Below are positions 3,072 to 62,919 of a DNA stretch of 64,000 nucleotides, piece by piece. The stretch lies in assembly GCA_039696685.1 (NCBI GenBank), contig CP155566.1, forward strand, positions 744,001 to 808,000, written 5' to 3'. Position 1 is the stretch's first letter, and each line of letters opens with the position of its first letter. The DNA is from Vibrio sp. CDRSL-10 TSBA. Lineage in GTDB: Bacteria; Pseudomonadota; Gammaproteobacteria; Enterobacterales; Vibrionaceae. The notes under the pieces are model-generated. The model saw only the letters and a list, made by a program, of their open reading frames with translations. It did not search any database and was not told the DNA's origin. Both the position numbers and the translations under genes were made by a program.

Positions 3072-3771
3072 ATGCAATTAGGTCGTCATATCTCAGGACA
3101 GTTTAACGTGGAGCTGGAGTCGATCCGCACGCATGTGCTGACGATGGGAGGCCTGGTTGAGCAGCAGTTGTCATTTGCCATGCAGGCGCTCAATAAAGGT
3201 GATGAAGATTTGGCGCGCAAAGTGGTGCGCGATGACCATAAAGTCAATGCGATGGAAGTGTCGATTGATGAGGCGTGCACACGCATTATTGCCAAGCGCC
3301 AGCCGACGGCCAAAGATCTGCGCTTGATCATGGCTATCATTAAGACCATCACTGACCTGGAAACGAATCGGCGACGTGGCGACTAAAATTGCCTATGTGG
3401 CGATTGAGAGCCCGGATGCCAAAGAGAGTCAGTTTCATGTCTCGCTCGAACCCTTGTGTCGCCAGGCGATTGATATGCTGCACCAGGTACTCGATGCGTT
3501 TGCACGTATGGATGTGGAAGCGGCGGCTCTGGTGCATAAGCTGGATGACAAGCTCGACAAAGAGTACGAAGCGGTGATTCGTCAACTGATGACGTACATG
3601 ATGGAAGACCCGAAAAACATCCCGCATATTCTGCAGGTGATGTGGTCGGCGCGCTCCATTGAGCGGGTCGGCGACCGCTGCCAGAACATCTGTGAGTACA
3701 TCATCTATTTCGTCAAAGGCAAAGATGTGCGCCATCTTGGCGATGAAGGCATCGATGACGCACTGCGTTAG
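3072..3771 (+). CDS. phoU: Phosphate signalling protein PhoU (frame broken by one extra A)
   Basis: PhoU is the cytosolic helical protein that links Pst transport to the PhoR/PhoB two-component system. It starts with an ATG after AAGGA. The frame breaks at 3361-3363, where AAA stands for AA. Removing one A turns the local reading into TDLERIGDVATK, the conserved PhoU motif, and gives one 232-residue protein of normal length. The second family motif, SIERVGDRCQNI, is present near the C-terminus. The local change is GAAC to GAAAC, the same as in thirteen other genes here, so I treat the gene as intact in the organism. Confidence 0.9.
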
Positions 3772-3797
3772 AACTGATTGTATAATAAAGAGCGGCA

Positions 3798-3851
3798 CGT
3801 ATATAAAAACTTGCTCGTATATAAAAACCTGTGCGTATATAAAACTGGCGC
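3798..3851. repeat. Three 18-bp tandem repeats after phoU
   Basis: Units start at 3798, 3816 and 3834 and share the core CGTATATAAAA. They lie in the 113-bp gap between the convergent phoU and ppk2 genes, 26 bases after the phoU stop. Confidence 0.8.
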
Positions 3852-3884
3852 CGGCGGAAGGAAGCGGCGCACTTCAGCAGCGGG

Positions 3885-4661
3885 TTAATACTTGAGCGGC
3901 ACCAGAGTCTGTTCTTCTATCGGCGAGCGGACATAGCCTTCCTTGTTGATTTCCGGCAGGTGGATGGGCGGATATTCAATGCTGCGATATTCGATGCTGC
4001 TGAGCAGATGGCTGATGCAGTTAAGGCGCGCACTGCGCTTGTCATCGGATGGCACCACCCACCACGGGCACTGCTTGGTATCGGTGTAGGCAAACATCTT
4101 GTCTTTCGCTTTGGAGTAATCGGCCCAGCGGTGACGGGATTCCAGATCCATCGGACTGAACTTCCAGCGTTTAATCGGGGTTTTGATCCGCTCGAGAAAA
4201 CGCTTTTCCTGCTCTTCATCTGAGACCGAGAACCAGTATTTGAGCAGAATAATCCCGGAGCGCTGCAACATACGTTCGAATTCCGGGCAGGAGCGCAGAA
4301 ACTCTTCATACTCTTCGCCGCTGCAAAATCCCATCACTTTCTCTACCCCGGCGCGGTTATACCAGCTGCGGTCAAACAGCACGATTTCACCAGCCGCCGG
4401 CAGATGGGCAACATAGCGCTGAAAATACCACTGGGTTTTCTCTTTTTCCGTCGGCGCGGGCAGGGCGGCCACCCGGCACACCCGCGGGTTGAGCTTTTCG
4501 GTAATACGCTTGATCACGCCGCCTTTACCGGCCGCATCGCGGCCCTCAAAAATGACCACGACTTTGAGCTTTTCATGTTTGACCCACTCTTGCAGCTTAA
4601 CCAGTTCAACCTGCAGCCGCTCGAGCTCTTTCTCGTACACTTTTCTTTTTAATTTGGTCAT
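3885..4661 (-). CDS. ppk2: Polyphosphate kinase 2 family protein
   Basis: This is a 258-residue PPK2-family kinase, which moves phosphate between polyphosphate and nucleotides. The P-loop is GRDAAGKGG at residues 40-48. The lid and Walker B region carries FDRSWYNRAGVE, and the typical PIKRWKFSPMDLESR segment follows. The length matches single-domain PPK2 proteins. It converges on phoU, so phosphate uptake and polyphosphate metabolism are neighbours here. The preferred substrate (ADP, GDP or AMP) cannot be read from the sequence. Confidence 0.9.
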   Translation of the reverse strand: MTKLKRKVYEKELERLQVELVKLQEWVKHEKLKVVVIFEGRDAAGKGGVIKRITEKLNPRVCRVAALPAPTEKEKTQWYFQRYVAHLPAAGEIVLFDRSWYNRAGVEKVMGFCSGEEYEEFLRSCPEFERMLQRSGIILLKYWFSVSDEEQEKRFLERIKTPIKRWKFSPMDLESRHRWADYSKAKDKMFAYTDTKQCPWWVVPSDDKRSARLNCISHLLSSIEYRSIEYPPIHLPEINKEGYVRSPIEEQTLVPLKY

Positions 4662-60041: not shown

Positions 60042-60057
60042 GCAAGGGAGATAAAAA

Positions 60058-60125
60058 TCGGAAACCCGGTGAAAGGTTTCCGATGCAGTGAGTTTGAGTT
60101 TGTGCCTGCGCGGAATGGCAGGCAC
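60058..60125. terminator. Two hairpins between LysR and GH3 genes
   Basis: CGGAAACC / GGTTTCCG (60059-60082) and TGTGCCTGC / GCAGGCACA (60100-60125) lie between convergent genes. The second is followed by a partial T run on the plus strand. They probably end both transcripts. Confidence 0.6.
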
Positions 60126-60137
60126 AAGAGCGTTGTT

Positions 60138-62919
60138 TTAGTAGGCGTATGCTTCACTCTTATCAACCTGGACCATAAACTGGACCGGACCAGGCAGCGG
60201 ATTCGAATTTTTTGAATCCAGAGTGATGTTTTGATGTGCGTTTACACTGCTTGAAAGCGGCAGCGAATCTGAGCTGTCACCGATTTCAATCGTGTAACGT
60301 CCTGCTTCCACTTCCCATTGTGCCTGTTTGACATCGTAATGGGCAAAGGAGCGAGCGTTGAGCGGAATGGATACCTGCTTGCTTTCTCCTGCTTGCAGAT
60401 AAATTTTGCTAAAGCCTTTCAGCTCATGTTGCGGACGTTCGACTGAGCTGCTCTGTGGATGCACGTACAACTGCGCCGTCTCATAGCCGGCCTGACTGCC
60501 GGTGTTGGTGACAGTGAAGTTCGCATACAGGGTTCCGTTTTCAGTCACCGTCTGCTCTGACAGAGTTAAGTTACTGAAATTAAACGTAGTGTAAGACAAG
60601 CCAAAACCAAACGGATACAGCGGTTTATGGTGCGAGATATCATAGCCACGGTAACCGAAGAACAAACCTTCCGAGTAGGTCATGTCTGTCTTGGCATTCT
60701 CGCCGATGTAATCATCCGGATTCGAATACGACGGGTATGACGGGTTGTATTTCAGCTTGCTGTCGAGTGTGATCGGCAGTTTACCTGATGGGTTCACATC
60801 ACCGTACAGAATTTCAGCCAGTGCCTGACCACCTAACTGACCACTAAACCAGGCATGCAGAATGGCTTTGGCTTTCTTGTTCCACGGCTGCATATCCATG
60901 CCGCCACCGCCATGCATGACCACAATCGTGTTGCGGTTGCTACGCATCAGGTTGGTCAGCAGGGTTGCCTGTTGCTCCGGCAGTTCAAAGTTCGGATCCG
61001 AAGCTTCACCTTCGTACTCATGGCTGCGTCCGACCACTGCGACAACGGCGTCATAGTCGCTCAGATCGGCGGGAGGCGTCAGCGAAGCCCAGCTAAGTTG
61101 TACGCCGTTCAGGCCGCCCAGTTGTCCCTGGAAGAACTGCTCGCGTGCGTATTCCAGCACAACCTGGTAGGTCTGGCCGGCTTTCAGGCGTGGGGTTTGC
61201 ACCGACAATGGGTTAGCATTCGGTACATCGGGAGCGCGCGGCTCGCCATCACTTTCCAGCAGCAGTTTGCCGTTCACCCAAAGTTTCACCGGGCCATCAG
61301 CACGTACTTTAAACACATGCTTACCGGTAATGGTTGGCTTAATGCTGGTGGTAAAGCGGGCCGAGAAGCCGCCCATCGATGGAGACAGATCATTGAGGTC
61401 ACGTGAGCCGTCAGCCTGTTCGGCTGTCACTGAACTACAGTCCAGTCCCTGCTCTTCTATGGTTTGAGCATCATTTTCGATACAGGCGTTTCTCCACGAC
61501 GTTGGTCATATTGGTCCAACTGAAGTTGATGCCTTGCTCTTCGCGGGTCAAAACCGGTTCACCAGCCCATTGGGTATTGGCAAAGTATTCGGCTTCAACG
61601 CCCACCCGGCAGGTATCATCGCTTGCCTGACAATTCGGGCTCAACCAAAGCGACTGTTCTGGTGACAGCGACATGCTCTTGATAAACGTCACGTTCTCGC
61701 TGTTGGTTGCTAACTGTTGCAGACCACTCAACTCGCTGACGTAATCGGATTCGGCATCGGAATAGCCGGTACCAAACGGTGAGCTTGGCGCTAGCTGAGC
61801 GCCGTTGCCGACCACGGCAATCCGCGCCGATTTATTCAGTGGCAACAGTGCCCCTTGGTTGCCAGACGCATCATTTTTCAGCAGAACAATGCCTTCACGT
61901 GCGGTATCGAGTGAAGCGGTCAGGCCGTACTCCGGATAATCCAGAGTTTGGGCCGGGTAGCCGCCTTTATCCAGGCCGTAACGGATCAAGGCACGCAGGT
62001 TGCGCGCGACTTTATCGTCGATGACGCTTTGAGCGAGAGTGCCGTTATCGACATAAGGTTGCAGTTTGTCCTGGGTAAACTGAAGGCCGGATGGCATATC
62101 CAGATCGGTGCCAGCGTAAGCGCCTTCATAGGCATTCTGAATCGCGTTGAAGTCAGACATGACGAAGCCCTGGTAGCCCCATTCATCTTTCAGTACTTCT
62201 TTGATGATGTGGTGATTTTCACAGGCGAAGTCGCCGTTGACCTTATTAAAACCACACATGATGGAGGCGATATCGGCATTTTTCACCAATGACTCAAACG
62301 GGACCAGGTACATTTCACGCAGGGTACGTTCGTCAACGTGCACGTCCAGAGCATGGCGGTTCGCTTCCTGCTCATTGGCGATCAGGTGTTTGGCACCGGC
62401 TTGAATGCCCTGAGCCTGGATACCGTTGGTGATCGCCGGCGCCATGACAGAGCACAGGAACGGGTCTTCACCACACACAGACTCAGCAGCGCGGCCATTC
62501 AGAGGAGTACGGTAAAGATTGACGACCGGTGACAGCATTTGTTCACCGCCGGCCATACGAGTTTCGTAGCCCAGGGCCAGACCTTGCTCCTGAGCTCGTT
62601 TGATATTCCAGGTTGCGGCCAGAGCTGTTTGTGAAGGGTAGCTGGCACCAAACGTGGTGTTATTTACATGCACACCTAATGTGGAATCGTAAGCAACTGT
62701 TCCTTCAATTCCAAAACGATCCAGACGCGGGATCATATGGCCGTCGTCAACTCGGATAAACTGATATTTTTCTTGCGCAGACATGTTATCCAGAATGGAG
62801 CTTACCTGTGCTTCGACTTCCAGCCAGGATTTACCGTTATAGTCAGCATGTGCGGCCGCCGGTGCCAGTGCTGCGAGCATACAGACCGTGATTGGTCGTA
62901 AGGTATTAGTAGGTTTCAT
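60138..62919 (-). CDS. Secreted GH3 beta-glucosidase with PA14 domain (one extra A)
   Basis: The corrected protein has 926 residues. A signal peptide ends AHA before DYNG. The GH3 barrel contains GEDPFLCSVMAPA, KHLIANEQEANRH and the nucleophile D256 in GFVMSDFNA. A PA14-like insert (FKVRADGPVKLWVNGKLLLE) and a C-terminal fibronectin-like domain follow. The frame breaks at 61489-61491 on the plus strand. Reading TTT as TT gives MTNVVENACIENDAQTIEEQG. The ATG at 62919 follows AAGGAT and overlaps the gene upstream. The likely role is hydrolysis of beta-glucosides in the periplasm or outside. Confidence 0.9.

What the first reader, a model, noticed from the sequence alone, without database searches (positions are those of the whole stretch)
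3361..61491. Fourteen host-gene frameshifts, all of one form: GAAC read as GAAAC (or GTTC as GTTTC)
Breaks are at 3361 (phoU), 18916 (secD), 21318 (isochorismatase-like), 27067 (hscA), 32987 (rodZ), 34201 (ispG), 39716 (der), 41258 (yfgJ), 43737 (guaB), 46809 (ompK), 50139 (satP), 54913 (LysR), 58504 (dadA) and 61489 (GH3). In each, removing one A from GAAAC, or one T from GTTTC, restores the known protein. If flanks were random, only about one in nine AA/TT pairs would lie between G and C in this order, so fourteen of fourteen is not chance. GAAC/GTTC is the known core of Dnd phosphorothioate modification (G-ps-AAC/G-ps-TTC in E. coli B7A and Salmonella), which marks only some sites and has no wider consensus. 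I infer read errors at a modified backbone or base, possibly in single-molecule data.
Basis: partly seen in the sequence, partly recalled or inferred. Interest (0 to 1): 0.93.

Follow-up and report, generated by a model that had tools for sequence, protein, structure and literature searches.

The report
DNA sulfur marks misread as mutations
The many broken genes in this Vibrio genome are most likely reading errors made where the bacterium's own sulfur-tagging system marks its DNA, so the finished sequence carries an accidental partial map of those tags.

Summary
A frame-aware comparison with relatives, blind to motif, found 27 of 27 well-supported +1 breaks at GAAAC/GTTTC in 125 kb of this genome and 25 of 25 in 106 kb of a second Vibrio (G033). 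It found 0 at that motif in 1.28 Mb from 64 other Vibrio genomes.

The genome carries dndBCDE and dptFGH, closest to the E. coli B7A subtype, whose mark is GpsAAC/GpsTTC. iscS, a possible sulfur donor, lies in the window.

Flanking bases at the error sites broadly follow the published phosphorothioate preference; hit rate rises from 0.7% to 17.6% with the match.

G035, with a 98-99% identical Dnd system in a SPAdes-style draft, has 0 events where 12.5 were expected.

Best explanation: consensus errors of native long reads at phosphorothioate sites; dnd genes themselves are hit. Platform and chemistry are inferred; no reads were available. Nanopore detection of phosphorothioates and modification-driven assembly errors are already in print.

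The parts
3072..3768 (+). phoU, one +1 break inside; intact copies in relatives
   Evidence: 3 of 3 references, 4 of 4; PhoU family match of the downstream piece
17845..19699 (+). secD, one +1 break inside; intact copies in relatives
   Evidence: 4 of 4 references; SecD family match of the upstream piece
   Evidence: PF00857 complete in one frame; no break called with the one usable reference
23878..25092 (+). iscS, intact; candidate sulfur donor for the Dnd system
   Evidence: TIGR02006 and NF010611 above cut-off; also matches DndA model TIGR03235 below its cut-off
26625..28476 (+). hscA, one +1 break inside
   Evidence: 4 of 4 references; HscA family
32987..33976 (+). rodZ (matched span), weakly supported +1 break at its upstream end
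   Evidence: 2 of 4 references, 27 score units on the short side; RodZ_C domain
33988..35104 (+). ispG, one +1 break inside
   Evidence: 4 of 4 references; IspG family
38422..39904 (+). der, one +1 break inside
   Evidence: 4 of 4 references; Der family
   Evidence: 6 of 7 references at the motif, one 9 bases away; span
42977..44468 (+). guaB, one +1 break inside
   Evidence: 4 of 4 references; IMP dehydrogenase family
46600..47319 (+). Tsx/OmpK-like porin (approximate span), one +1 break inside
   Evidence: 3 of 3 references, intervals 46809-46818; PF03502
49759..50353 (+). satP acetate transporter, one +1 break inside
   Evidence: 4 of 4 references; NF038013
54643..55552 (+). LysR-family regulator, one +1 break inside
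   Evidence: one reference only; NF007307 match below its cut-off
57772..59035 (-). dadA, one +1 break inside
   Evidence: 3 of 3 references; NF001933
60138..62949 (-). GH3 glycosidase in two ORFs
   Evidence: PF01915 split over the two ORFs; no placement by alignment

Best explanation
The breaks are consensus errors of sequencing, not mutations. The cell's Dnd complex (DndCDE, fed with sulfur by IscS, regulated by DndB and paired with the DptFGH restriction module) replaces a backbone oxygen by sulfur at part of its GAAC/GTTC sites. When native DNA is read by a single-molecule platform, most likely nanopore, the altered backbone disturbs the signal at the motif, reads gain a base in the two-base A or T run, and at sites marked in most molecules the error survives into the consensus. 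Shown here: motif-limited errors, the dnd and dpt genes, the B7A-like subtype, the flank preference, a second dnd+ genome with the same errors, and their absence from a short-read-style assembly with a near-identical Dnd system. Inferred: the sulfur chemistry in these strains, the platform, the roles of the proteins (from their families), and that most reads carry the error at the broken sites.
For: Motif-limited +1 breaks, 27 of 27 and 25 of 25, against 0 at the motif among 13 +1 events in 64 other Vibrio genomes. dndBCDE and dptFGH present; in the genus 29 of 227 genomes pass the DndC cut-off. DndC 67-72% identical to E. coli B7A DndC, against 36-38% for the other Vibrio clade compared. Flanks: pooled 64 error sites against 2,261 intact sites, C at -2 41% against 27%, A/C at -1 77% against 45%, T/G at +1 75% against 52%, G at +2 56% against 35%, the four preferences reported for EcoWI-seq phosphorothioate sites (PMC9521924, passage). 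G035, Dnd proteins 97.9-99.3% identical to those of G033, identical over 15 kb to a record named NODE_4, has 0 events in 53,175 bases where 12.5 were expected. Nanopore error signals at phosphorothioate GAAC/GTTC, lost in a dndC deletion, are published (PMC9069010, section 19 and passages).
Against: No reads, platform record or chemistry were seen. 27 other dnd+ Vibrio genomes lack the mark in 479,516 compared bases; this fits other platforms or other Dnd types but was not shown case by case. By counting alone the link with dnd is weak: 2 of 29 dnd+ against 0 of 37 dnd-, and G033 was chosen because its dndC was split. Part of the flank rule fails in detail: at -1 the excess is in A (33 of 64) with T nearly absent (1 of 64), while C is not enriched (16, 14.7 expected) and G is slightly above expectation (14, 11.4 expected); in G000 alone C at -2 is not enriched (p 0.4). 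Flank effects could also come from the basecaller. One G197 (dnd+) event had a wide interval holding the motif and did not pass the strict rule.
Confidence: 0.88

Rival explanations
1. Same kind of reading error, but caused by base methylation at GAAC/GTTC (or methylation combined with phosphorothioation) rather than by the sulfur alone.
For: Modification-driven nanopore assembly errors at methyltransferase motifs are published (PMC10687267, passages). PMC9069010 itself names methylation at shared motifs as a limitation (passage). A TIGR04096 putative methyltransferase adjoins dndB in this genome.
Against: G000 and G033 hold a B7A-like Dnd system and the flank preference was measured on phosphorothioates. 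Only 2.7-2.9% of sites are hit, which fits partial marking. A methyltransferase specific for GAAC was not searched for.
Confidence: 0.08
2. Real in-cell mutations: phosphorothioate sites are slippage hot spots and this lineage carries many true frameshifts.
For: It would give the same motif; sequence alone cannot exclude it at any single site.
Against: At about one break per 4.7 kb compared a great many genes would be broken, among them genes recalled as essential in relatives (ispG, der, secD). G035 with near-identical Dnd proteins has none in 53,175 compared bases, nor at the motif do the 27 other dnd+ genomes.
Confidence: 0.01
3. Ordinary long-read homopolymer error or a poor assembly, with the motif a coincidence.
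For: One -1 event in a C run in G033.
Against: Strict events are almost only +1 and only at GAAC/GTTC, while GAAC/GTTC is 9-11% of AA/TT runs. Frameshift-rich drafts examined (G002, G086, G087, G094, G221) show mainly -1 events and none at the motif.
Confidence: 0.02

Closest known systems
Dnd phosphorothioation of the E. coli B7A / Salmonella Cerro 87 type (GpsAAC/GpsTTC)
   Same: dndBCDE with dptFGH (for B7A, where dptF lies outside the stretch shown); DndC 67-72% and DndE 64-72% identical to B7A; motif and broadly the flank preference
   Different: Sulfur not measured here; the mark is seen only as sequence error; DndD only 51-54% identical to B7A
Nanopore detection of phosphorothioates (Wadley et al. 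2022, PMC9069010; passages and section 19 read)
   Same: Native DNA gives error signals at GAAC/GTTC in a dnd+ strain; 3.9% of GTTC and 4.4% of GAAC called in wild type
   Different: They compare raw reads with amplified DNA; here the mark is in finished assemblies, as one-base gains
Modification-mediated errors in nanopore assemblies (PMC10687267; passages read)
   Same: Untrained modifications leave motif-bound consensus errors
   Different: There Listeria, motifs GCAGC and GCTGG, counted as mismatches; here GAAC/GTTC, one-base gains and, by inference, a backbone mark. Its main text holds no 'phosphorothio', 'dnd', GAAC or GTTC

Membership tests
Dnd system, GpsAAC/GpsTTC type | dndB, dndC, dndD, dndE together | tested here: met
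   TIGR03233, TIGR03183, TIGR03184 over their cut-offs; dndD in two pieces, one over and one just under the cut-off, both over
Dnd system, GpsAAC/GpsTTC type | DndA or IscS as sulfur donor | tested here: met
   iscS in the window; no separate dndA was searched for; that IscS can replace DndA is from PMC9521924 (passage)
Dnd system, GpsAAC/GpsTTC type | restriction partner DndFGH/DptFGH | tested here: met
   TIGR03238, TIGR03236, TIGR03237 over cut-off; dptH in two pieces
Dnd system, GpsAAC/GpsTTC type | sulfur at G-ps-AAC/G-ps-TTC | not testable with these tools
   Inferred from error sites only
Dnd system, GpsAAC/GpsTTC type | flank preference C, A/C, motif, T/G, G | tested here: met
   Pooled, all four positions enriched; in G000 not at -2, and C itself not enriched at -1
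Modification-driven nanopore assembly errors | errors bound to one motif | tested here: met
   52 of 52 strict +1 events in the two genomes
Modification-driven nanopore assembly errors | native nanopore reads | not testable with these tools
   No reads or platform record
Modification-driven nanopore assembly errors | errors absent when the same DNA type is read by another technology | tested here: inconclusive
   G035: 0 events in 53,175 bases with near-identical Dnd, but another strain, and short reads inferred from a contig name
Ssp phosphorothioation (CpsCA) | marks at CCA | tested here: not met
   Error sites are at GAAC/GTTC, 52 of 52; ssp genes were not searched for

The most novel reading that the evidence does not exclude
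Finished public assemblies hold unintended, site-resolved maps of DNA backbone phosphorothioation: where a GAAC-type dnd+ strain was assembled from native long reads alone, a one-base gain records sites that Dnd marks in most molecules. Read together, such assemblies suggest that Dnd follows one eight-base preference (C, A/C, GAAC, T/G, G, with T before and A after the motif disfavoured) from Salmonella to Vibrio, which bears on why only some motifs are marked.
Probability: 0.6. Interest if true: 0.72.

Novelty: new variant of a known kind. Interest (0 to 1): 0.62.

Why it matters
It turns apparent gene decay into a recoverable epigenetic record. Annotators would otherwise call housekeeping genes, and dnd genes themselves, pseudogenes. 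If general, archived assemblies could be mined for phosphorothioate sites and for the open question of how Dnd chooses among motifs; the two genomes here already reproduce most of the published flank preference from sequence alone. It also warns that completeness and pseudogene statistics of dnd+ long-read genomes may be biased.

Tried and rejected
Homopolymer error, true mutation and methylation alone were weighed (see rivals). Searches for further affected genomes found none: by DptH in the order (19 of 394 genomes hold it; among these only G000's frame is short) and by DndD in the phylum (18 of 398 at E 1e-40; G000 split; G668's frame is also short, 267 aa, with 390-635 of the model matched, and was not looked into); none of these genomes outside the genus was checked by sequence. 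A dnd-blind screen by purL in 227 genus genomes gave 9 with two matches: G000, G002, G033, G083, G086, G087, G094, G209, G221. For 8 of these 9 (not G083) a stretch elsewhere in the genome was examined, and the mark was only in G000 and G033. E. coli: 204 of 5426 genomes hold dnd; 60 of 204 were listed, each with the four dnd genes named, but their genomes were not examined for the mark. Searches for prior reports of phosphorothioate-caused frameshifts or assembly errors listed nothing that by title or start of abstract describes them; one search listed 20 of 24 papers, 20 of 65, 12 of 513; 4 papers were opened in part (PMC9069010, PMC9521924, PMC9650216, PMC10687267). Overlap of sites between G000 and G033: of 37 sites 26 align in the fetched stretches, 4 keep the motif, 1 of these is hit in both, too few to conclude.
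Full report
What was checked. The window lies in a two-contig genome of 4.9 Mb, G000:C2:744001-808000, completeness 95.9, contamination 4.55. The genus Vibrio is taken from the record titles of the nearest named loci. I compared its DNA with ORFs of relatives by a frame-aware alignment that knows nothing of motifs. 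With relaxed limits it also gave support for rodZ (2 of 4 references), yfgJ (6 of 7 at the motif) and ompK (3 of 3), the first two with little sequence on one side. The GH3 gene is split by domain content. The isochorismatase site stays open. So 13 of 14 are supported to differing degrees and 1 of 14 is not settled.

Specificity. Under one strict rule (at least two references, more than half of those used, 100 score units on each side) this genome gave 28 events in 125,483 compared coding bases: 27 +1, all 27 at GAAAC/GTTTC, and one -1. A second species, G033, gave 26 events in 106,203 bases: 25 +1, all 25 at the motif, and one -1 in a C run. The other 64 genomes gave 51 events in 1,276,059 bases, 13 of them +1, none at the motif. 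In an earlier, looser pass one event in G197 (dnd+) had a wide interval that held the motif; it did not pass the strict rule. GAAC/GTTC makes up 11.2% and 9.4% of isolated AA/TT runs in the fetched DNA of the two affected genomes, so the restriction to the motif is far from chance. In the looser list, 4 of 42 and 1 of 29 +1 events were off the motif, all single-reference calls.

The modification system. Own-genome searches found dndC and dndD at C2:1206615-1210145. The fetched locus (L094, L095) holds dndB, dndC, dndD and dndE on one strand and dptF, dptG and dptH on the other, with a TIGR04096 putative methyltransferase beside dndB. Both affected genomes carry a DndC 67-72% identical, piece by piece, to that of E. 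coli B7A, while two genomes of another Vibrio dnd clade (G200, G154) are at 36-38%. In the genus, 29 of 227 genomes pass the DndC cut-off. The intact iscS of the window may supply sulfur; that IscS can replace DndA is stated in PMC9521924 (passage).

The flanks. EcoWI-seq of Salmonella Dnd, in E. coli and similarly in its own host, found C at -2, A or C at -1, T or G at +1 and G at +2 over-represented at marked sites (PMC9521924, passages). Pooled, 64 error sites against 2,261 intact GAAC/GTTC in the same compared regions show 41% against 27%, 77% against 45%, 75% against 52% and 56% against 35%; T at -1 or A at +1 occurs in 5 of 64 against 1,286 of 2,261. The share of sites hit rises with the number of matching positions from 0 to 4: 2 of 269, 7 of 801, 22 of 851, 24 of 353, 9 of 51. 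Per genome, G033 is significant at all four positions (p 0.001-0.002); G000 is at three and not at -2 (p 0.4). In detail the -1 excess is in A, with T nearly absent; C is not enriched there and G is slightly above expectation, so the rule is met as a class, not letter by letter. I give this test much weight because the preference was published independently of these genomes; a basecaller's own context bias cannot be ruled out as a contributor.

The natural control. G035 has DndB, DndC and DndD 97.9-99.3% identical to those of G033. It is identical over 15 kb to L040, Vibrio cincinnatiensis 19-VB00020 NODE_4, a SPAdes-style contig name, which suggests short reads. In 53,175 compared bases, one of six stretches giving none, it has no event, where the rate of G033 predicts 12.5. 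Nearly the same enzymes with, probably, another reading technology leave no mark. That argues against true mutation and for a reading error, with the reservation that the strain differs and the technology is inferred from a name.

The errors strike the system's own locus: in G000 dndD and dptH (dptH with one reference), in G033 dndC and, twice, the neighbouring methyltransferase gene, each a +1 break at GAAAC/GTTTC. An annotation pipeline would call the modification system broken, probably because it works.

Mechanism. Shown: motif-bound one-base gains in two dnd+ assemblies, their flank preference, the genes, the control. Inferred: sulfur at G-ps-AAC/G-ps-TTC, native single-molecule reads, and a disturbed signal at the motif giving one extra A or T. 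The share of sites with an error is 2.7% and 2.9%; nanopore detection in Salmonella gave 3.9% of GTTC and 4.4% of GAAC (PMC9069010, section 19), EcoWI-seq 12% (PMC9521924, passage). A consensus error needs most reads to err, so a lower figure is expected.

What is known and what is new. That nanopore sees phosphorothioates is published (PMC9069010), and that untrained modifications corrupt nanopore assemblies is published for Listeria (PMC10687267, passages). I found no report of phosphorothioate written into finished assemblies as frameshifts in the searches, in an open-licence library and judged from listings. I file it as a new variant of a known kind.

Limits. Two affected genomes, one chosen because its dndC was split. 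'dnd-' here means under the DndC cut-off. The comparison covers coding DNA with references only. Association of the mark with dnd by counting alone (2 of 29 dnd+ against 0 of 37 dnd-) is weak; the weight lies on the motif, the flanks and the control. Methylation at GAAC was not excluded.

Noticed in passing
L217, L218, L219, L220, L137 (G002, G086, G087, G094, G221): Draft Vibrio genomes rich in frame breaks of another kind: 4 to 7 strict events per roughly 18-19 kb compared, mainly -1 (26 of 29 in all), none at GAAC/GTTC.
   Followed up: partly
Genus search; L214, L215: Eight dnd+ Vibrio genomes score as one full-length DndC match and two of them (G200, G154) are only 36-38% identical to B7A DndC; none of the eight shows the mark. 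They may mark another motif.
   Followed up: partly
L095:3793-4681: A gene of unknown role upstream of the dnd genes in G000, also with a +1 break at the motif (4 of 4 references).
   Followed up: no
L095:1513-3540 and L184: A TIGR04096 putative methyltransferase gene adjoins dndB in G000; relatives of it occur in the dnd loci of G033, G035, G222, G111, G200 and G154.
   Followed up: no
window 7427-8266 and 48478-49501: An ISL3-type transposase, and two ORFs with HTH_33 and DDE_3 domains that look like an IS630-type transposase in two pieces (element type names recalled except DDE_Tnp_ISL3).
   Followed up: no
E. coli genomes: 204 of 5426 complete E. coli genomes carry dnd; 12 are at least 99%, 2 are 95-99% and 190 are 80-90% identical to the B7A operon, a ready set for testing the mark against platform metadata.
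   Followed up: no
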